A stretch of 64,000 nucleotides of DNA from Spiroplasma endosymbiont of Clivina fossor (GTDB lineage: Bacteria > Bacillota_I > Bacilli_A > Mycoplasmatales > Nriv7), in contig NZ_OZ035006.1 of assembly GCF_964031115.1 (NCBI RefSeq), positions 1,302,001-1,366,000 of the forward strand, given 5' to 3'. Within the stretch, counting starts at the first letter, position 1, and each line of letters begins with the position of its first letter. The position numbers and the translations under genes were made by a program. Below the pieces are notes generated by a model. That model was not told the DNA's origin, did no database searches, and saw only the letters and a list, made by a program, of their open reading frames with translations. Of this stretch, positions 2,277 to 57,570 are shown one piece after another.

Positions 2277-3881
2277 TTAATTTTATGACATTGCGGAGCA
2301 ATTTGATACATTTACAACGGTTATTTTAAAAACATTGTAAGCTATTTATTTTTAGCAGGTTGTATTTTAATTTTTCTTTTTAAAATCGGTAATTTAACAC
2401 AAATTAACAAAGTTATTAATTTCTTAAAAAATTCACCATTAAATATTGTGATTGGTTCATTAGGAACTGGAAAAACTGCTTTTCTAGTATATGCATCAAA
2501 ATTACTAAAAAAGAAGAAATATCACATCGCCTCAACCTTTCCATTACTAGAAACCCAAAAATTAAGTTTAGGACATATGGGATTATTAGACTTTGATTAT
2601 CCGGTATTGCCAGACAAAACCTTACTTTTGTGAGATGAAACCAATTTTTTAATTTTGTCGAAAACTCTTGATAAAATAAAAAAAATCATCAACTTGATAA
2701 TTTTAAAAGGCTTTTATGTAAAATTACTATTTTTACTTTAACTTTTTTATACATTAAAATATAATACCGCTGTTTGTTGGTTTGGAGTTAAACCCTTATG
2801 TTGGTATTTTCATTTTCAGAGATTTAAATAATTTTGAATATTAGTAAAACCTAAACCATGATAATGAATTAAGGCTTCTTTAAGACTAGATTGTAATTTA
2901 CTGATTTTATTTAAGTTACGATAACTAGCTTCAGGATTAATTGTTGTTTTAGTTACACATAAAGTAGAATTTGTTTGTTTTGCTACTAAAAAATATAATT
3001 TTTGCATATCAGAAGTAATAATTGAATTTTCGTTAATTAATTCTTTGTTCATATTTTCAATAACTCATTGTTTTTGTAAACGTTTGGTGTTTGTGGATTT
3101 AACATAAATATTGTTATTATTATCAATTGCCATTTGAATACAACATTTAGTATTAGTTGCGAATGGGTCAAGGTGAATTCTTCGTGGATCAGTTTTATAT
3201 TTGAAATTTCCTTTATGGATTTCTTTAATAAATGTTTCATCGATTTGGATTTTACCAGATAATTTTTTAAATTATCAAGTTGATGATTTTTTTTATTTTA
3301 TCAAGAGTTTTCGACAAAATTAAAAAACCAATTTATTTTTAGAAGGAACTGATTGAGAAAAAAAATAATACCAAAAACGAAGAAACCGGTATTCAAGAAT
3401 ATTTCGCTTTGGCACGCCATTTCGGTCATATTGTGCTGGCTAGCGGTCAAAGAGAGATAAACATATTTGAGTTAAAGTTCGTGATATTGCTAATAATGTG
3501 ATTGTGGGCATTCGCAAAAAACCTGTTAATATTTTTCGCCCTTACTTAAAAGTCATTTATGGTACCTTTACGAGCATTGAAGAATATGAACGCTGACGAA
3601 ACACCTTAATTGATGCTAAAAATAACAAAAAAGGTCGCCATATTAAATATCGTGATATTCCTGAACTTGATATTTATTTTTTTAAACTAAAAATTCCTTT
3701 ACCGATACTTAACACTTACAATTCTTTTTACCTAGCATTTTTAAGAGATTACTTAAATTCAAAAGTTAATCCCGACTATGAAGACAAATACTATACTGAC
3801 ACCGCAATTGATTTAGAAGACTTAGAATACTTAAAAATGGATAAATTTAGCAAATTTTTAAGAAAAATGAAAGAAAAATAA
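2211..3881 (+). pseudogene. Zot-like assembly ATPase, broken (copy A)
   Basis: The N-terminal part reads a membrane segment and a P-loop (GSLGTGKT) followed by LLLWDETN, the Walker B region; this is the pI/Zot family that drives extrusion of filamentous viruses through the membrane. An IS1595-like element (2647-3325) is inserted directly after DETN, with an 8-bp target duplication AACCAATT. Compared with intact copy B (56570-57556), this copy also has one extra A in the run at 3358-3365 and two extra bases near 3452-3456. All three lesions destroy the protein. Confidence 0.85.
2647..3325 (-). mobile_element. IS1595-like internal-deletion derivative (copy b)
   Basis: A 679-bp element with full IS1595-like ends (TTTTAATTTTGTCGAAAACT and its complement) and an exact 8-bp duplication AACCAATT (2639-2646 and 3326-3333). 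Only the C-terminal part of the transposase remains (minus strand, up to about 3272). The transposase 5' end and the normal right terminus are replaced by an inverted copy of the left terminus, so both ends are the same roughly 56-bp sequence. The clean duplication means that this shortened form itself transposed, presumably using a transposase in trans. Confidence 0.8.
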
Positions 3882-6812: not shown

Positions 6813-6978
6813 ATTATATGAAAAATTTGAAGCATTAATTTCACTTATGATACTAGGGTATTTAGATATATGCATTACAATAGCAGTAGTTATAAACTGT
6901 AGCATTGAGTAACTTATTAAAAAAATTAAAGAAAAAAGAATAATGAAAAATAAAATATTTTAAAAAGGAGTGATAAAA

Positions 6979-8766
6979 ATGTTTATGAAAATATTTACCA
7001 TGCTAACTATTAGTTTTAATAACATTTTTACTATTCCACCAAACATTAACAACGAGAAAACGGCAGTGCAATTAGTTAGAAATAAAAGAAAAACTCAATA
7101 TAAAACATATGACTTAAAATTTTCAGAAATAAATAACAGTTATTTACAATCATTGTATAAAAAAGGTAGTGACCCACTATATATTAATATTGACTCAGTA
7201 AAAGAGCAATTACCTTTAGAAATAAAAAATTATGGAGAAAATACTAGAGGGTTTGCTGTCTTTACCAATGAACCAGTATTTAAAGAAATTAAAGAAATTT
7301 ATAATTATAAAAAAGAAAACAGCACCCCAGAAGAAAGAGAATTTTTTGATAAAGATTTCCAAAAAACAAATATTGAATATTTTTATACTGCTAAAAAAAT
7401 TAAAGATGTAAAAATAACAATACAAGAATATAGTTATCCCGGTTCAAACAAATTTCATATTAAAAAATTTTTAGCAAAATTAGAAACTAAACCAAGTACG
7501 GACATTGATTTGCCAGAAACAACCACCAAATTTGACGGCAACCATAACTATAGTGATGTTGTTATTGATAATCTTGACTATTTAATGATTCACCGTGGTG
7601 ATTTTGATAAATTTAATTACTCTTATCTCTATTGAACACCAGTATTTAATTTCATTGACACTTTAGAAAAAGGTTACTATAAAGAATTCACCATTAAAAA
7701 TCATGGTTTTAAAGGCGAGAGCTATTTTTATCACAAGACTTCTAGTAATAAAAATGTAGTAAATGAGAATGTTTTGAAAATTCAGGCATTTAACAAAACT
7801 ATAATTGCCGGAAATAAGTATTTACAATTGCTACACGGTGAAAAGGAAATCTGAAAATATGATACTGCAAACGCTAACGATTATTACCTAATTAAGTATC
7901 TTTTTGGTACTTTAAATTACCTTAATGTTAGATTTAGTTTTCTACGCTATGACCCAGATTTACGAAATGATATTTACCTATATTTTAAAAATAACATTCC
8001 TAGTATTAACAACAGCGATTACAAAAATGTTTTTGACGAAATCTATGAAATCCTTGGTAACTTCTTTGCCAGTTTATTTTATGCTACTTTTGATATGGAC
8101 GAAAAAACTTACACCGAAATTGATTTTAAGGGTGTAGATAATTACAACAAAAATTACTTTATTCAAATCGGTTTCTTTTACCGTTCATTAATTACCTTTT
8201 ATCCCAAAAAATACTTAGTAAATATTATAGGAAACTCAGAATTATTACTAAGAAGTTATTTCTTTACTTTTGACAAAAAAACGCATCAAGAGAATTATGA
8301 TGCCTTTAAAAACAATAATAGTATCTACCAAATTGATTTTAATGTCTTAAAATCCTATGATAATAAACTAATTATCTTGCCAACCAGCAAGACTGCTAAC
8401 AGCATCAATTACCTCAATACCGATATTGATATTCGTTATGGTATTAATATTTTTACCTTAACCTTTCCACTTTATCACAAAGATAATATCTCTAACTACA
8501 ATTTTAAAATTTATGACTTTAATGTCTTAAATTCAACAGCCTTTATCCCTGATGGTTCAAATAACAGTGAATGAGACGATTTAATTCCACCAGCAAATTG
8601 TAAATATTCTGGACGATGAATACCAACTTTTAATGATATTGGATGTGCCATTATTCAAAATGCTGGTATCAAAATGATAAACTGAATGCTGACAGCGTCA
8701 CGAACGAATCATTACAATTTTACGCGCCCCCCCCCCGTTAGCAATTATTGCAAAAGCAACAGTTAA
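6979..8766 (+). CDS. Plectrovirus ORF1 virion protein (copy A)
   Basis: A large protein starting with a short hydrophobic signal-like segment (MFMKIFTMLTISFNN). Residues about 42-165 form a domain unrelated in sequence to that of copy B; the remainder, from about residue 175 (FDGNHNYSDV), is closely conserved. A run of ten C at 8727-8736 shifts the frame, so translation ends at 8766 after about 595 residues. With nine C the frame runs to TAA at 8878 and gains the C-terminal membrane segment (FYYTFQFLIGFAIF). By architecture (signal, variable exposed domain, C-terminal anchor) it resembles minor adsorption proteins such as pIII. AAAAGGAG precedes the chosen ATG. Function is inferred. Confidence 0.75.
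8727..8736 (+). repeat. C10 homopolymer inside ORF1
   Basis: Ten consecutive C in a genome where C runs longer than four are very rare. It decides whether ORF1 keeps its C-terminal membrane anchor. Copy B has only CGCCCACTA at this point and is in frame. Confidence 0.85.
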
Positions 8767-38570: not shown

Positions 38571-38833
38571 TGGATAGCGATAAAATAAGTAGTGATTTTG
38601 TCGAGTTTGAAAATAATCCTCGCAATGCTACAAAATATGAACAAGAACAACAAGCGAAATCCAAAATTATTCAGTTAAAGAAGAAAATTCGGCGTAGTGA
38701 TAAAATTGGTGGGAAAATATGAGCTTTGTTCATTATTTTTGCTAGTATTTTGGCGCTTGCTCGTTTAACGGTTATTGGTCAATTTTTAGATGATGTTTTT
38801 TTCAATTTTCTTTTTGGATGATTTAAATACATT
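38571..38833 (+). pseudogene. ftsK: 5' end of an FtsK/SpoIIIE DNA translocase, cut by IS5
   Basis: The first 87 or so codons give a charged N-terminus and the first membrane segments (KIWALFIIFASILALARLTV, then FFNFLFGWFKY), as at the start of FtsK-type translocases. AGGAGATAAAAGG precedes the ATG. An IS5 element begins at 38834, and the DNA beyond it is unrelated. The motor domain is not in the window; since ftsK is normally important, a complete copy or the missing part must be sought elsewhere. Confidence 0.6.
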
Positions 38834-39901
38834 AGACTTCTTGCAAAATTAATATGATAATTATAATTTTTAAATTTAAAATAAATATAAAAGTGTTATT
38901 AAAATAATTTTTAGATTATTTTTACAAATATTTTGTCATTAAAACATAATAAAAATTATTATTTACAATAAAAAAAGACTGAAATTTTAAATTATCAAAT
39001 ATATTTAAACTAATAGTTGTAAATTATAAATTGAAGCTATTAAATTAAATCTTAAAGCAAATCTTTTTCTACGATTTCGATATTTTTCACTAATAATTTT
39101 AAATTTTTTAAGTATAGCAAAAACATTTTCAATAACAATTCTCATTTTTGAAATTCGCTCATTATTTTGCTTTTCTTCTTTATTTAAAGGGTTTTTCTTT
39201 GATTTTCTTTTAGGAATTAAAACATTATGATTAATTTTTTGTATGCCTTGATAACCTAAATCCACTAAAACAGTTGTTTCTGGTAAAAATTTAATTTTTG
39301 AATCTTTTAAAATTTTAAAGTCATGGTTTTTACCATAAGAAAAATCAGAACTAATAATTTTTTTACTATCTTTTTCAATTATAACTTGTGTTTTTATTGT
39401 GTGTTTTTTCTTTTTTCCTGAGTAGTGCTGTTTTTGTCTTTTTTTGGGCGTTGGATTTGGCTTTCAGTTACATCAATTATAACAGTCTTATCTTTGAAAT
39501 AATCTTTTAATAGTGATTTTTGACCAGTAAGTTGTTGAAAATTAGGGTGTTTTATTAAAGTGTCTTCAATTCATTTGATATTTCTATAACAACTACTTTC
39601 ACTAATATCATAACTTTTTGCAATATGAAAATAAGTTCTATATTCTCTTCAATATTCTAAAGTCATTAAAATACGATTTTCTAATGATAATTTATTGGTT
39701 CTTCCGCGACGAAATCTCTTTTTTAATTCTTCTATTTTTAAAATTTCTAGCATTTTATTAAAAGTAGTATGTTTAATACCAGTTAATCTTAAAAAATTTT
39801 TATCACTTATTTGATTATTTTTTTTAAATTTCATTTAAATTCCACCTTTTTATTAAAAACAACAATTCAATTATATTTTAAATTAATTTTGCAAGAAGTC
39901 T
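38834..39901 (-). mobile_element. IS5-family element, copy 4
   Basis: A 1068-bp copy between the ftsK stub and the lipoprotein gene. ATT flanks both sides, but since all copies target ATT this does not prove that the flanks were once contiguous; the right flank (TTGAAAAAATAAA) matches DNA behind viral ORF1. Confidence 0.9.
39005..39834 (-). CDS. IS5-family transposase, frameshifted (copy 4)
   Basis: Two frames joined by a -1 shift, as in copy 2. Confidence 0.85.
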
Positions 39902-39935
39902 ATTGAAAAAATAAAACAATAAAGGAATTAAAATA

Positions 39936-40412
39936 ATGAAAATTTTAAACATAATAACTCTTTCAGGGCTAACGGTATCGCCAATAGTTAGCTGTTCTAA
40001 AAAAGCGAATGAATTAGTAGAACAAAAGAATAAAGTTTTTGATTTTAAAATCAAAAATTTAGAAAAAGTAGAATTTTGAATTTCAAATACAAAAATTGTA
40101 CGAGTTCAAATATATAAAAAAGATAATAGCAATTTAAATGAAAAATTACCAGAATTAAAAAATTTAAACAACTTTACTTTTCTATTTACACAAAAATTTC
40201 AAAATAATCAAGATAAACAAGAAAAAATTAGAAAATCAATAACTACACACAGAACAAAAATAGAAAATGAAGATGATAAATGAGTAATTAATAAAAAAAT
40301 AACAATCAAAGCACAAGGCACAGAGTTAAATGTTTGAACCAATAATAATCTTACAAAAGATTACTTTTTAGAAAATATAAATGATTTTGAAATTGAAATT
40401 GAAAATTCGTAA
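39936..40412 (+). CDS. Lipoprotein carrying the exchangeable domain of viral ORF1
   Basis: A 158-residue lipoprotein: signal peptide with lipobox (SPIVSC, Cys near residue 20), a short linker, then about 120 residues (VFDFKIKNLEKVEFWISNTK to INDFEIEIE) almost identical to residues 43-165 of ORF1 in viral copy B. It ends exactly where the conserved part of ORF1 begins. AAAGGA lies before the ATG. DNA upstream matches the region behind ORF1, so it may be virus-borne. Possible roles: host adhesin from which the virus took its domain, or a viral surface protein blocking superinfection. Both are inference. Confidence 0.75.
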
Positions 40413-40463: not shown

Positions 40464-41784
40464 GGGACTGTACAATTAACTGTGTCTCTAAGTAATTAAC
40501 TTAAATTCACTCTGTCCTCAAATTTTATCATTAAATGTGAAATTGCACTACCCCAATTTTGAATTGGCATCGTTCATTTCTTAACCATATTTTGAAATGC
40601 TAAATAAAATATTTTAAAAACTGATGCGTCATTAGGAAAAATCTTTTTATTCTTAATGACTTTTCTTAATTGACTATTAACAGATTCAATCGCATTAGTT
40701 GTGTAAATAATTCTTCTAAATTCCTGAGGATATTCAAGAAAAATTATTAAATTATTTCAGTTATTTTTTCATGATTTAGTAATTTGTGGATACTTTTTAT
40801 TTCATTTTTCTGAAAAATGATCTAAAGCAATTAACGCTATTTCTTCATTAATTGCTGTATAAATTGATTTTAAATCATTAGCTACAAGTTTGCGATCTTT
40901 GTAAGGAACAAATTTTAAACTATTGCGAATTTGATGAACAATGCATAATTGATGCTGTGTTTTTGGGAAAACAGCTTCTATTGCATCAGACATCCCAGTT
41001 AAATTATCACTACAAGCAACAAGAATATCTTGTAACCCACGATTTTTCATTTCCGTAAGATTATTAAGTCAAAATTTGGCTCCCTCATTCTCACTAATTC
41101 ACATTCCTAAAATATCTTTTAAACCATCTAAATTAATTCCTAAGGCAAGATAAACTGCTTTATTTATTATTCGTTTATCTTGCTTTACTTTAACAACAAT
41201 ACAATCAAAATAAACAATCGGATAAATCTTCTCTAAAGGTTTAGTTTGTCACATTTTAACTTCTTCAATAACATCATCAGTTATTTGACTAATTAAACTT
41301 TCTGAAATTTCTGCTCCGTGATAGAATTCTTGCAATTGTGCTTTGATATCAGAAATTGTCATTCCTCTTGCATATAAAGAAATTACTTTTTGATCAAAGT
41401 TATCAAATCTTCTTTGTCTTTTTGGAATAATTACTGGTTCAAAAGTACTATTTCGATCTCTTGGTACATCAATTGCGATTGAACCATTTTTAGTAATAAT
41501 GGTTTTTTGTGTGTTGCCATTTCTTTTATTATGATTCTCATCAGTTTCAAGATAATCTTTAATTTCCGTATTTAACATTCGTTCAGTTAATTTTTTGGTA
41601 AATTCCTGAAAAATAGTATTGCCTTTAAATAAATCTTGTGGATTATCAATATTTTCTAAAAAATAATCAACAACTTTATCAATTGCGTCAGGTTCTTTTT
41701 TTATTTTTTTTGTCATTTTCTGCTCTCCTTCTTTTAAGTATAATTCAGAATGAATTATCGAGACACAGAATTTTGGACAGGCTC
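40464..41784 (-). mobile_element. IS256-family element (iv), intact
   Basis: A 1321-bp element with exact 8-bp duplication TAATTTTC at 40456-40463 and 41785-41792, inserted in non-coding DNA behind the lipoprotein gene. Confidence 0.93.
40496..41716 (-). CDS. IS256-family transposase (iv)
   Basis: 406 residues, open from ATG to TAA; same motifs as at 19211-20431. Confidence 0.92.
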
Positions 41785-52186: not shown

Positions 52187-52406
52187 TTTTAATTTTGTCG
52201 AAAACTCTTGATAAAATAAAAAAAAATCATCAACTTGATAATTTTAAAAGGCTTTTATGTAAAATTACTATTTTTACTTTAACTTTTTTATACATTAAAA
52301 TATAATATCGCTGTTTGTTGGTTTGGAGTTAAACCCTTATGTTGGTATTTTCATTTTCAGAGATTTAAATAATTTTGAATATTAGTAAAACCTAAACCAT
52401 GATAAT
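52187..52406 (-). pseudogene. IS1595-like left-end fragment (copy f)
   Basis: The outer 220 bp of the main element, with the last residues of the transposase, cut by IS5 copy 6 at GATAAT. Confidence 0.85.
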
Positions 52407-53474
52407 AGACTTCTTGCAAAATTAATATGATAATTATAATTTTTAAATTTAAAATAAATATAAAAGTGTTATTAAAATAATTTTTAGATTATTTTTACAA
52501 ATATTTTGTCATTAAAACATAATAAAAATTATTATTTACAATAAAAAAAGACTGAAATTTTAAATTATCAAATATATTTAAACTAATAGTTGTAAATTAT
52601 AAATTGAAGCTATTAAATTAAATCTTAAAGCAAATCTTTTTCTACGATTTCGATATTTTTCACTAATAATTTTAAATTTTTTAAGTATAGCAAAAACATT
52701 TTCAATAACAATTCTCATTTTTGAAATTCGCTCATTATTTTGCTTTTCTTCTTTATTTAAAGGGTTTTTCTTTGATTTTCTTTTAGGAATTAAAACATTA
52801 TGATTAATTTTTTGTATGCCTTGATAACCTAAATCCACTAAAACAGTTGTTTCTGGTAAAAATTTAATTTTTGAATCTTTTAAAATTTTAAAGTCATGGT
52901 TTTTACCATAAGAAAAATCAGAACTAATAATTTTTTTACTATCTTTTTCAATTATAACTTGTGTTTTTATTGTGTGTTTTTTCTTTTTTCCTGAGTAGTG
53001 CTGTTTTTGTCTTTTTTTGGGCGTTGGATTTGGCTTTCAGTTACATCAATTATAACAGTCTTATCTTTGAAATAATCTTTTAATAGTGATTTTTGACCAG
53101 TAAGTTGTTGAAAATTAGGGTGTTTTATTAAAGTGTCTTCAATTCATTTGATATTTCTATAACAACTACTTTCACTAATATCATAACTTTTTGCAATATG
53201 AAAATAAGTTCTATATTCTCTTCAATATTCTAAAGTCATTAAAATACGATTTTCTAATGATAATTTATTGGTTCTTCCGCGACGAAATCTCTTTTTTAAT
53301 TCTTCTATTTTTAAAATTTCTAGCATTTTATTAAAAGTAGTATGTTTAATACCAGTTAATCTTAAAAAATTTTTATCACTTATTTGATTATTTTTTTTAA
53401 ATTTCATTTAAATTCCACCTTTTTATTAAAAACAACAATTCAATTATATTTTAAATTAATTTTGCAAGAAGTCT
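52407..53474 (-). mobile_element. IS5-family element, copy 6
   Basis: A 1068-bp copy with IS1595 DNA on its left and viral ORF1 on its right. Both flanks read AAT, but the empty IS1595 site does not continue into the right flank, so recombination between two IS5 copies made this junction. Confidence 0.9.
52578..53407 (-). CDS. IS5-family transposase, frameshifted (copy 6)
   Basis: Two frames joined by a -1 shift, as in copy 2. Confidence 0.85.
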
Positions 53475-53490
53475 AATATATATATATATA

Positions 53491-55356
53491 TTATACAAAA
53501 ATTCGTAAAATCATTAGAAAAATGGCAAAGCCAATTAAAAACTGAAAGGTATAGTAAAAGGCAGGTACCGTTTTAAAAATTGGAAAAATGGCAGTTGAAA
53601 AATTAACTGTTGCTTTTGCGATGATTGCTAGTGGGCGTAAAATGGTAATAATTTGTGACGCTGTCAGCATTCAGTTAATCATTTTGATACCAGCATTTTG
53701 AATGGCACATCCAATATCATTAAAAGTTGGTATTCATCGTCCTGAATATTTGCAATTTGTTGGCGGAATCAAGTCGTCTCATTCCGAATTTGTTGAACCA
53801 TCAGGTATAAACGCCGTGGAATTAAGGACATTAAAGTCATAGATTTTAAAATTGTAGTTAGAAATATTTACTTTATGGTACAAAGGAAAGGTTAAGGTAA
53901 AAATATTAATACCATAGCGAATATCAATATCGGTATTAAGATAATTAATTTTGTTATTTGTTGGTTCAGATGGTAGAGCAATTAGCTTATTATCATAGGA
54001 TTTAAGGACATTAAATTCTATTTTATAGATACTGTTATTATTTTTAATAGCATTATAATTTTCTTGGTGCGTTTTTTTATCAAAAGTAAAGAAGTAACTT
54101 CTTAGTAATAATTCCGAATTACCAATAACATTGATTAAATATTTTTTGGGATAAAAGGTAATTAACGAGCGATAAAAAAATCCAATTTGAATAAAGTAAT
54201 CTTTCTTATAGTTTTCTACGCCCTTAAAGTTAATTTCGGTATGAGTTTTTTCGTCCATATCAAAAGTTGCATAAAATAAACTGGCAAAGAAATTGCCAAG
54301 AATTTCGTAGATTTCATCAAAAATATTTTTATAATTGTTACCGTTAATAGTACGAATGTTGTTTTTAAAATAAAGGTAAATGTCATTTCTTAATTCAGGG
54401 TCGTATCTTAAGAAACTAAATCTAATATTAAGATAATTTAACACTCCAAAAAGATACTTAATTAGGTAATAATCGTTAGCATTCACAGTATCATATTTTC
54501 AAATTTCCTTTTCACCGTGTAATAATTGTAAATAATTGTTTCCGGCAATTAGGGTTTTGTTAAATGCCTTGATTTTAAGGATATTTTCATTAATATTGTT
54601 TAAATCTGTTGATGTTTTGTGATAAAAGTAGCTTTCGTTTTTAAAACCGTAATTTTTAATCATAAATTCTTTGTAGTAACCTTTTTCTAAAGTGTCAATG
54701 AAATTGAATACTGGCGTTCAATAAAGATAAGAGTAATTAAATTTATCAAAATCACCACGATGAATCATTAAGTAATCAAGGTTCTCAATGACATCATTAT
54801 AGTTATGGTTGCCATCAAAATTAGTTGTTGTTGTCGGTAATTCAATATCGGTACTGTCTTTTTCAATTTCAATTTCAAAATCATTTATTTTTTCTAAAAA
54901 GTAATCTTTTGTAAGATTATTATTGGTTCAAACATTTAACTCTGTACCTTGTGCTTTGATTGTTATTTTTTTATTAATTACTCATTTATCATCTTCATTT
55001 TCTATTTTTGTTCCGTGTGTAGTTATTAATTTTCTAATTTTTTCTTGTTTATCTTGATTATTTTGAAATTTTTGTGTAAATAGAAAAGTAAAGTTGTTTA
55101 AATTTTTTAATTCTGGTAATTTTTCATTTAAATTGCTATTATCTTTTTTATATATTTGAACTCGTACAATTTTTGTATTTGAAATTCAAAACTCTACTTT
55201 TTTTAAGCCTTTGATTTCAAAATCATAAACTTTATTGTTTTGTCTTTTATTTCTAATTAGGGCTTGTGTTGTTATTTCATCATTATTAATGTTTGGTGGA
55301 ATAGTAAAAATGTTATTGAAACTAATAATTATCATGGTAAATATTTTCATAAACAT
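53491..55356 (-). CDS. Plectrovirus ORF1 virion protein, full length (copy B)
   Basis: A 621-residue protein with signal-like N-terminus (MFMKIFTMIIISFNN), an exchangeable domain (about residues 43-165) nearly identical to the lipoprotein at 39936-40412, then the conserved body (FDGNHNYNDV onwards) and a C-terminal membrane segment near the end (FQFLIGFAIFLMILRIFV). Several Trp are TGA. AAAAGGAG lies upstream. Architecture fits a minor capsid protein that binds the host and anchors the virion end during assembly. Complete, unlike copy A with its C10 tract. Confidence 0.8.
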
Positions 55357-56569: not shown

Positions 56570-57556
56570 TTATTGTTCCTTTTCTTTCATTTTTCTTAAA
56601 AATTTGCTGAATTTATCCATTTTTAAGTATTCTAAGTCTTCTAAATCAATTGCTGTGTCATTATAGTATTTATCTTCATAGTCAGGATTTACTTTTGAAT
56701 TTAAGTAATCTCTTAAAAATGCTAGGTAAAAAGAATTGTAAGTGTTTAATATTGGTAGAGGAATTTTTAGTTTAAAAAAATAAATATCAAGTTCAGGAAT
56801 ATCGCGGTATTTAATGCGACGACCCTTTTTACTATTTTTAGCATCAATTAAGGTGTTTCGTCAGCGTTCATATTCTTCAATACTAGTAAAGGTGCCATAG
56901 ATGACTTTTAAATAGGGGCGAAAAATATTAACGGGTTTTTTACGAATGCCCACAATCACATTATTGGCAATATCACGAACTTTAACTCAAATATGTTTAT
57001 CTCTTTGACCGCTAGCGAGAACAATATGACCGAAATGGCGTGCCAGAGCGAAATATTCTTGAATACCGGTTTCTTCGTTTTTGGTATTATTTTTTTCCCA
57101 ATCAGTTCCTTCTAAAAATAAGTTGGTTTCATCTCATAAAAGTAAGGTTTTGTCTGGCAATACCGGATAATCAAAATCTAATAATCCCATATGGCCTAAA
57201 CTTAATTTTTGGGTTTCTAGTAATGGAAATGTTGATGCGATATGATATTTCTTCTTTTTTAATAATTTTGATGCGTATACTAGAAAGGCGGTTTTTCCAG
57301 TTCCTAATGAACCAATAACAATATTTAATGGTGAATTTTTTAAGAAATTAATAACTTTGTTAATTTGTGTTAAATTACTGATTTTAAAAATAAAAATTAA
57401 AATACAACCTGCTAAAAATAAATAACTCACAATGTTTTTAAAATAACCGTTGTAAACATATCAAATTGCTCCTCAATGTCATAAAATTAAAAATGAGGTG
57501 CGATTCAATTCAATAAAATGGTTATTTTTTTCTATTATTCATTTGCAAAATTTCAT
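56570..57556 (-). CDS. Zot/pI-like assembly ATPase (copy B)
   Basis: A complete 328-residue protein: one or two membrane segments in the first 65 residues, P-loop GSLGTGKT (about residue 84), Walker B LLLWDETN, then EYFALARHFGHIVLASGQRDKHIWVKVRD, the family's sensor region. Zot-type ATPases drive extrusion of filamentous viruses. The ribosome site lies in the hairpin arm described for copy A. It has the A7 run in frame where copy A has A8. Confidence 0.85.
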
Positions 57557-57570
57557 CTTGCACCTCACTT
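57491..57570 (-). promoter_or_regulatory. Hairpin covering the zot ribosome site (copy B)
   Basis: Same pairing as at 2197-2276, with one A-to-G change tolerated as G-T. The conserved arms are GTGAGGTGC and GCACCTCAT. Confidence 0.5.

What the first reader, a model, noticed from the sequence alone, without database searches (positions are those of the whole stretch)
39936..40412. A free-standing lipoprotein equals the exchangeable domain of viral ORF1
The mature part of this 158-residue lipoprotein (from VFDFKIKNLEKVEFW to the last residues INDFEIEIE) is almost identical to residues 43-165 of ORF1 in viral copy B (53491-55356). The match stops exactly at the domain edge on both sides; only the export signal differs (lipobox SPIVSC here, viral signal there). 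If ORF1 is the host-binding virion protein, a membrane-anchored copy of its binding domain could occupy the receptor and block superinfection, or it could be the host adhesin from which the virus acquired its tropism.
Basis: partly seen in the sequence, partly recalled or inferred. Interest (0 to 1): 0.85.

Follow-up and report, generated by a model that had tools for sequence, protein, structure and literature searches.

The report
Virus lipoprotein copying its own attachment domain
Rod-shaped viruses of Spiroplasma bacteria carry, next to the gene for their attachment protein, a second gene that appears to put a copy of the same variable attachment domain on the infected cell's surface, probably to block re-infection by the same virus type, and the gene found here is a stranded leftover of that arrangement.

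Summary
The 158-aa lipoprotein matches ORF1 copy B (minus strand) at 116/123 residues and 96.9% of DNA, with sharp edges. But it is not a host gene that resembles a virus. It is a stranded copy of a gene that plectroviruses carry themselves, usually 10-60 nt after ORF1. I found it in 77 distinct viral copies, in two Spiroplasma genera and three virus lineages. It is tandem in two lineages and on the opposite strand in the SpV1 lineage, including published SkV1 and R8A2B (and, frameshifted, C74), whose records do not annotate it. The domain varies greatly between viruses, often to no detectable similarity, yet each lipoprotein carries its own virus's version: 28 of 28 virus types match their own ORF1 best. 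Some virus pairs are largely conserved around and between two slots, yet both slots hold a different domain, the same one in each slot. The lipoprotein follows the domain (partial Mantel r 0.89 and 0.88), not the backbone. Most likely it displays the receptor-binding domain on the cell surface, occupies the receptor and blocks re-adsorption of kin virus: specificity-matched superinfection exclusion (about 0.6; function untested). The host-adhesin reading is not supported. R8A2B is a natural mismatched exception.

The parts
39936..40412 (+). Orphan viral lipoprotein gene (158 aa; signal peptide and lipobox residues 1-20, lipidated Cys20 at 39993-39995)
40035..40403 (+). Copied ORF1 domain in the lipoprotein (residues 34-156)
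   Evidence: 116/123 identical to ORF1 copy B; AF2 model of the mature part pLDDT 88.6, pTM 0.82
39903..39935 (+). Remaining viral 5' flank with ribosome-binding site (TTGAAAAAATAAAACAATAAAGGAATTAAAATA), close to that of intact viral copies
   Evidence: alignment with L021, L027 and others
38833..39902 (-). 1070-bp insertion sequence (terminal repeats TAGACTTCTTGCAAAATTAA / TTAATTTTGCAAGAAGTCTA) that cuts the orphan off at the place of the TATATA tract after ORF1
   Evidence: transposase 39394-39834 has HTH_Tnp_4
40496..41716 (-). Mutator/IS256-type transposase bounding the orphan on the right
   Evidence: Pfam Transposase_mut E 3.7e-116
53491..55356 (-). ORF1 (adhesion protein) of viral copy B, 621 aa: signal, variable domain, conserved body, C-terminal hydrophobic segment
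54862..55230 (-). Variable (exchangeable) domain of ORF1 copy B, residues 43-165
52406..53475 (-). Same 1070-bp IS inserted about 15 nt after the ORF1 stop of copy B, where intact copies carry the lipoprotein gene
   Evidence: no domain-like DNA within 3 kb downstream
56570..57568 (-). Homologue of SpV1 ORF2 upstream of ORF1 copy B, showing that the element is a plectrovirus
   Evidence: 33% identity to C74 ORF2, E 3e-33; phrog_11343 E 2.9e-50
6970..8766 (+). ORF1 of viral copy A with a different variable domain; no lipoprotein found within 3 kb downstream

Best explanation
The gene is a stranded copy of a plectrovirus gene that I call the ORF1-partner lipoprotein. Spiroplasma plectroviruses carry a highly variable domain in ORF1, the adhesion protein, and a second, cell-anchored copy of exactly that domain in a small lipoprotein next to it. 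Proposed mechanism: the infected or lysogenic cell displays the virus's receptor-binding domain on the outer face of its single membrane; there it occupies the receptor in cis, so released progeny do not re-adsorb and viruses with the same domain type are excluded. When a virus changes its domain, the lipoprotein must change with it. Shown here: gene position, lipoprotein signal, sequence copying, matching in 28 of 28 virus types, decoupling from the backbone, tandem and convergent gene layouts. Inferred: that the ORF1 domain binds the receptor, that the lipoprotein is expressed and surface-displayed, and that it excludes virus. The window copy itself has lost its upstream context and may be silent.
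For: (1) In intact viral copies of lineages 1 and 2 the lipoprotein gene usually lies 13-60 nt after ORF1 on the same strand; in the SpV1-C74 lineage it lies 10-26 nt after ORF1 on the opposite strand; one lineage-2 virus (L154) has an opposite-strand version with a different signal. Different signals and orientations with the same content suggest the pairing arose more than once. (2) Matching: 56 intact ORF1+lipoprotein pairs, median own identity 93.5%; over 77 viruses in 28 types, 28/28 lipoproteins match their own ORF1 best, against a mean of 1.0 and a maximum of 7 in 10,000 permutations. (3) The lipoprotein tracks the ORF1 domain and not the ORF1 body: partial Mantel r 0.890 (lineage 1), 0.878 (lineage 2), 0.605 (C74 type), 0 of 2000 permutations as high in each. 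(4) Two-slot replacement: L021 vs L168 are 92.5% identical upstream, 96.8% in the 1.37-kb body and 96.7% in the lipoprotein signal, but 59.8% in the ORF1 domain and 60.6% in the mature lipoprotein (shuffled expectation 57.7%); both lipoproteins match their own ORF1 at 93-95%. (5) Differences within a pair sit at the domain edges (26% and 15% in the outer tenths, 1-5% inside). (6) Precedents: in Ff phages pIII made in the host saturates TolA and blocks superinfection (PMC7070036); in T5 the exclusion lipoprotein Llp lies directly downstream of the receptor-binding protein pb5, and purified pb5 blocks infection (PMC9586334). (7) ICTV names gene 1 of the plectrovirus SVTS2 the adhesion protein (PMC8295915).
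Against: No expression, receptor or infection data. The ORF1 domain has no fold or family match, so its receptor-binding role rests on position, variability and the ICTV name, which was given for SVTS2, a virus without this domain. R8A2B, a published virus isolate, has a mismatched lipoprotein (33% to its own ORF1; 78% to that of virus L222), so matching is not essential for propagation. SVTS2 lacks both the domain and the lipoprotein, so the reported S. citri resistance linked to integrated SVTS2 DNA (cited in PMC8140453) cannot be credited to it. Low synonymous divergence within pairs (dS mostly 0.01-0.13) shows DNA-level homogenisation (concerted evolution), which could keep copies alike without selection for matching. 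Thirteen of 69 intact ORF1 copies have no intact lipoprotein next to them.
Confidence: 0.6

Rival explanations
1. Assembly or release partner: the lipoprotein pairs with the ORF1 domain, or caps it, at the membrane to help place ORF1 on the particle or to shield its binding site until release. Matching would then reflect self-association of the domain.
For: Adjacent and tandem with ORF1 with no terminator-like site between them, so probably cotranscribed in lineages 1 and 2; matching to own ORF1 is equally expected.
Against: Self-association was not tested. In the C74 lineage the gene is on the other strand beyond a terminator-like hairpin, so it is made separately from the virion genes. C74 carries it frameshifted and R8A2B mismatched, yet both are virus isolates.
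Confidence: 0.15
2. No function of its own: the lipoprotein is a by-product of repeated domain duplication, kept similar by gene conversion between the two copies in the viral genome.
For: Concerted evolution at synonymous sites (for example L168 vs L097: between-virus dS 0.125/0.127, within-virus dS 0.018). Pooled within-pair pN/pS 0.60 is not strongly constrained.
Against: A complete lipoprotein signal and an open frame are kept in 56 of 69 intact ORF1 loci. Between related viruses the lipoprotein is as constrained as the ORF1 domain (pooled pN/pS 0.709 vs 0.718; dN/dS about 0.1 for both genes in L168/L107 and L156/L172). Matching is kept across unrelated domains, where homology inside the domain cannot start conversion, and in both gene layouts.
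Confidence: 0.13
3. Surface adhesin or conversion factor: the displayed domain lets infected cells bind other Spiroplasma cells or insect tissue, aiding spread of virus or host; virus exclusion is incidental.
For: A surface-anchored variable binding domain is what an adhesin looks like; hosts here include insect symbionts (G001 is the Nebria riversi endosymbiont).
Against: Does not predict that the domain must match the same virus's ORF1 in 28 of 28 types.
Confidence: 0.08
4. Host gene: a host surface protein (adhesin or antiviral lipoprotein) from which the virus acquired its domain, or a domesticated viral copy kept for antiviral defence.
For: The orphan at 39936-40412 is intact and stands alone, and a second intact orphan lies at genome position 441639-442148 with no ORF1 body in the 1.5 kb upstream. 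Orphaned viral entry proteins can become restriction factors (soluble truncated Env, PMC11019853).
Against: The gene is a regular viral gene in 77 distinct copies. The orphan keeps viral 5' and 3' flanks cut by two insertion sequences, has lost its upstream transcription context, and is no more different from ORF1 copy B than normal viral pairs are from each other.
Confidence: 0.04

Closest known systems
pIII-mediated superinfection immunity of Ff filamentous phages (M13, f1, fd)
   Same: The host-facing adsorption protein made in the infected cell occupies the (co)receptor and blocks infection by the same phage type (PMC7070036); same order of viruses, Tubulavirales.
   Different: In Ff phages the full virion protein itself does it; here a separate gene carries only the variable domain on a lipoprotein anchor, and the gene switches together with the domain.
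Llp of phage T5 (and Cor of T1-like phages), exclusion lipoproteins
   Same: Small viral lipoprotein encoded directly downstream of the receptor-binding protein gene; stops further infection (PMC9586334).
   Different: [quoted passage not shown] here the lipoprotein is a near-identical copy of the adsorption protein's domain and would sit on the outer face of a single membrane.
Ltp of Streptococcus thermophilus phage TP-J34
   Same: Surface-exposed phage lipoprotein for superinfection exclusion (PMC3952083).
   Different: The reported target is the tape measure protein; it is a mobile moron-type gene and not matched to an adsorption domain.
Soluble truncated Env restriction factors from endogenous retroviruses (FeLIX)
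   Same: A free receptor-binding piece of a viral entry protein blocks infection by competitive receptor binding (PMC11019853).
   Different: Product of a defective endogenous env in a mammal; here intact viruses carry and co-evolve the piece.
Repeats annotated in SpV1-C74 (inverted) and SkV1-CR2-3x (repeat_region)
   Same: Exactly this feature: the repeat arms are the ORF1 domain and the lipoprotein domain.
   Different: The records annotate only repeats; no lipoprotein gene is called and no function given.

Membership tests
Plectrovirus (Plectroviridae) gene | Lies in a viral gene block with homologues of SpV1 ORF2 and ORF1 | tested here: met
   ORF2 homologue 33% to C74, E 3e-33; ORF1 profile match to the C74 lineage, hhalign probability 72, E 3.5e-5, weak; order ORF2 - small ORFs - ORF1 as in C74
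Plectrovirus (Plectroviridae) gene | Present in recognised isolates of the family | tested here: met
   SkV1 (155 aa, 90% to own ORF1 domain), R8A2B (133 aa), C74 (frameshifted); absent from SVTS2
Bacterial lipoprotein | N-terminal signal with lipobox and Cys | tested here: met
   MKILNIITLSGLTVSPIVSC, Cys20, by pattern; similar signals in the other copies
Bacterial lipoprotein | Lipidated and displayed on the outer face of the membrane | not testable with these tools
   Needs surface labelling or proteomics
Superinfection exclusion lipoprotein (Llp, Cor, Ltp kind) | Encoded by the phage near the adsorption or tail genes | tested here: met
   Usually 10-60 nt after ORF1 in intact copies
Superinfection exclusion lipoprotein (Llp, Cor, Ltp kind) | Blocks infection by the same or related phage | not testable with these tools
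   No infection data; inferred from matching only
Superinfection exclusion lipoprotein (Llp, Cor, Ltp kind) | Homologous in sequence or fold to a known exclusion protein | tested here: not met
   No Pfam match; PHROGs only insignificant (best E 0.034); no Foldseek match with E <= 0.001 in PDB or BFVD
pIII-type immunity | Immunity protein is the adsorption protein or contains its receptor-binding domain | tested here: inconclusive
   Sequence copying shown; that the copied domain binds the receptor was not tested
Host adhesin | Encoded by the host outside viral DNA | tested here: not met
   Viral gene in 77 copies; the orphan keeps viral flanks

The most novel reading that the evidence does not exclude
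A whole virus group carries a two-slot specificity system: one interchangeable receptor-binding domain is held in both the adsorption protein and a cell-displayed lipoprotein, and both slots switch together. This gives kin-specific exclusion: each virus type marks its cells against its own type only, so a Spiroplasma genome with many prophage types would carry many separate exclusion specificities, and orphans such as the window gene would be leftover immunity.
Probability: 0.5. Interest if true: 0.9.

Novelty: new variant of a known kind. Interest (0 to 1): 0.8.

Why it matters
How infected Spiroplasma cells that keep releasing virus avoid being re-infected is, as far as I know, open, and most plectrovirus proteins have no known function (PMC8295915). 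The paired domain names the likely specificity part of ORF1, points to an unannotated gene in the type viruses, and turns exclusion into a prediction that can be checked type by type: only matching domains should block. It also offers a clean natural case of two separate genes that change in step, with R8A2B as a ready-made mismatched control.

Tried and rejected
Assembly chimera: rejected, because the arrangement recurs in other genomes and in published virus records. Host adhesin or domesticated host gene: considered and rated low (see rivals). Single insertion that split copy B from the orphan: the same IS lies at both places, but each gene abuts the same end of the IS (transposase 5' end), which one insertion does not give; two separate insertions into the TATATA tract fit better. 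Credit for SVTS2 resistance: rejected, SVTS2 has no such gene. Fold: the domain model is good, but no solved or viral fold matches significantly; weak OB-like hits (TM about 0.35) were not used. Full ORF1 model: too poor to use (pLDDT 33). tblastn in the phage collection and scans of viral contigs found nothing; near records may be left out there, so this is not evidence of absence. Literature: full-text searches for plectrovirus with lipoprotein and for SpV1 with ORF1 listed no paper that appears to describe this gene (judged from titles and abstracts, and from passages of PMC8140453 and PMC8779666); subscription papers, including the original SpV1 sequence papers, could not be read. Coordinated double swap as the only history: not claimed; a late exchange of the ORF1 body between viruses would give the same picture, but in either case crossovers inside the body would leave mismatched pairs, and few are seen (R8A2B; broken chimera L146).

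Full report
Observation. The window gene at 39936-40412 (+, code 4) encodes a 158-aa protein with a lipoprotein signal ending in IVS|C. Its residues 34-156 match residues 43-165 of ORF1 copy B without gaps, with 7 mismatches in 123. At DNA level the match is 96.9% over 127 codons, dS 0.046 and dN 0.029. ORF1 copy B lies on the minus strand.

It is a viral gene. The genome holding the window (2.05 Mb, one contig) has 58 places that match the lipoprotein and 113 that match ORF1. Many come in pairs on one strand: ORF1, then 16-60 nt later a lipoprotein whose mature part copies that ORF1's N-terminal domain. Upstream of ORF1 copy B lies a homologue of SpV1 ORF2 (33% identity, E 3e-33), and a profile comparison links ORF1 to that of the SpV1 lineage, weakly but over 225 columns. 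The elements are therefore plectroviruses. Two ORF1 lineages occur here (bodies about 45-49% identical), and both carry the lipoprotein.

The type viruses have it too. In SpV1-R8A2B and SkV1-CR2-3x a lipoprotein gene lies on the opposite strand 14 nt after ORF1; in C74 the same gene is frameshifted in the record. There the variable domain sits inside ORF1 at about residues 175-285. The records annotate only repeats (C74, SkV1) or nothing (R8A2B) at this place. Searching 320 genomes of the order with the SpV1-type ORF1 found strong matches in nine genomes of a second genus, and most of the intact loci read there carry the convergent lipoprotein, 78-100% identical to their own ORF1 domain. One lineage-2 virus (L154) has an opposite-strand lipoprotein with a different signal, 98% identical to its own ORF1 domain. 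SVTS2 lacks both the domain and the lipoprotein.

Matching. Among 69 distinct intact ORF1 proteins of the first set, 56 have an intact downstream lipoprotein; median identity to their own ORF1 domain is 93.5%, and apart from R8A2B (33%) the lowest is 80%. Of the 13 others, two have domain-like DNA about 1.2 kb away, several have it broken, and for the rest none was found in the DNA held. Pooling all sets gives 77 viruses in 28 types at 60% domain identity; the lipoprotein of every type's representative matches its own ORF1 best (28/28; permutations mean 1.0, maximum 7 in 10,000), and similarity to other types (identity scaled for short matches) has median zero and maximum 53%. The count includes R8A2B as one representative, although it matches its own ORF1 at only 33% and, among all viruses, fits L222 better.

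Two slots. Lipoprotein similarity follows domain similarity and not the ORF1 body: partial Mantel r 0.890, 0.878 and 0.605 for the three lineages, none of 2000 permutations as high in any. L021 and L168 show it most simply: 92.5% identical upstream, 96.8% in the 1.37-kb body, 96.7% in the lipoprotein signal, but 59.8% in the ORF1 domain and 60.6% in the mature lipoprotein, against 57.7% for shuffled DNA. Each lipoprotein is 93-95% identical to its own ORF1 domain. L087 and L091 show the same in the body and the two slots, though their upstream DNA differs. Differences between the two copies of a virus cluster at the domain edges.

How the copies stay alike. Within one virus dS between the copies is low (for example 0.018) while the same genes differ between viruses by dS 0.125 and 0.127 (L168 vs L097). 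That is concerted evolution, so conversion between the copies takes part. It does not by itself show selection for matching. Between related viruses the lipoprotein is as constrained as the ORF1 domain (pooled pN/pS 0.709 and 0.718), which speaks against a functionless by-product. Where a new, unrelated domain arrives, conversion inside the domain cannot start from homology, yet both slots carry it.

The window orphan. It keeps the viral ribosome-binding site and the viral 3' flank. On the left a 1070-bp IS (38833-39902) cuts it off in the TATATA tract that follows ORF1 in intact copies; on the right lies an IS256-type element. ORF1 copy B has the same 1070-bp IS about 15 nt after its stop and no domain-like DNA within 3 kb. 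The two may come from one virus type, but one insertion does not explain both junctions. The orphan has lost its upstream context and may be silent.

Mechanism. ICTV names gene 1 of SVTS2 the adhesion protein (PMC8295915). A surface-anchored copy of its variable domain, nearly always of the same type, is what a receptor-occupying self-exclusion factor would look like in a host with one membrane and no wall. Precedents exist: Ff pIII made in the cell saturates TolA (PMC7070036); T5 Llp lies directly downstream of pb5, and purified pb5 blocks T5 (PMC9586334). None of the functional steps was tested here. R8A2B, whose lipoprotein fits virus L222's ORF1 domain at 78% and its own at 33%, shows that matching is not essential for a virus to propagate, and offers a natural control.

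Structure. The mature lipoprotein models well as a mixed strand-helix domain (pLDDT 88.6, pTM 0.82) but has no significant fold match in the PDB or among viral models and no family match.

Limits. Many loci are multi-copy relatives, so the type count (28) is the safer number. Domain boundaries in the statistics were set by fixed residue windows, and lipoprotein signals were called by a simple pattern. Absence from the phage collection and viral contigs is uninformative, since near records may be left out. I found no published account of this gene in the open papers searched; the original SpV1 papers were not readable here, so novelty is provisional.

Verdict. Observation confirmed; interpretation partly supported and moved from host to virus. 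A new variant of a known kind (superinfection exclusion by receptor occupation), interest 0.8.

Noticed in passing
window 52406-53475 and 38833-39902: The same 1070-bp IS has entered the TATATA tract just after ORF1 in copy B and just before the orphan lipoprotein; another viral remnant (genome 735272-735733) also has this transposase 48 nt after an ORF1 fragment, so the tract looks like an insertion hot spot.
   Followed up: partly
NC_003793 (C74), 3277-3695 minus strand (locus L074): The convergent lipoprotein of SpV1-C74 is split by a frameshift in the record; I cannot tell a sequencing error from a real defect.
   Followed up: partly
L146 (G001:1186000-1194000), downstream of ORF1: A broken lipoprotein gene whose start fits its own ORF1 type and whose rest fits another type (L192): apparently a recombinant within the domain that is now a pseudogene.
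   Followed up: partly
window 6970-8766: ORF1 copy A is 598 aa with its last part in another frame (match continues at genome 1310705-1310875); its variable domain resembles that of L167/L168.
   Followed up: partly
L039 8684-10882 and similar loci: A subgroup of lineage-1 ORF1 proteins is about 730 aa long, with roughly 100 extra residues between the N-terminal part and the body; not examined.
   Followed up: no
genome 441639-442148 (locus L024): A second intact lipoprotein of this kind with no ORF1 body in the 1.5 kb upstream.
   Followed up: partly
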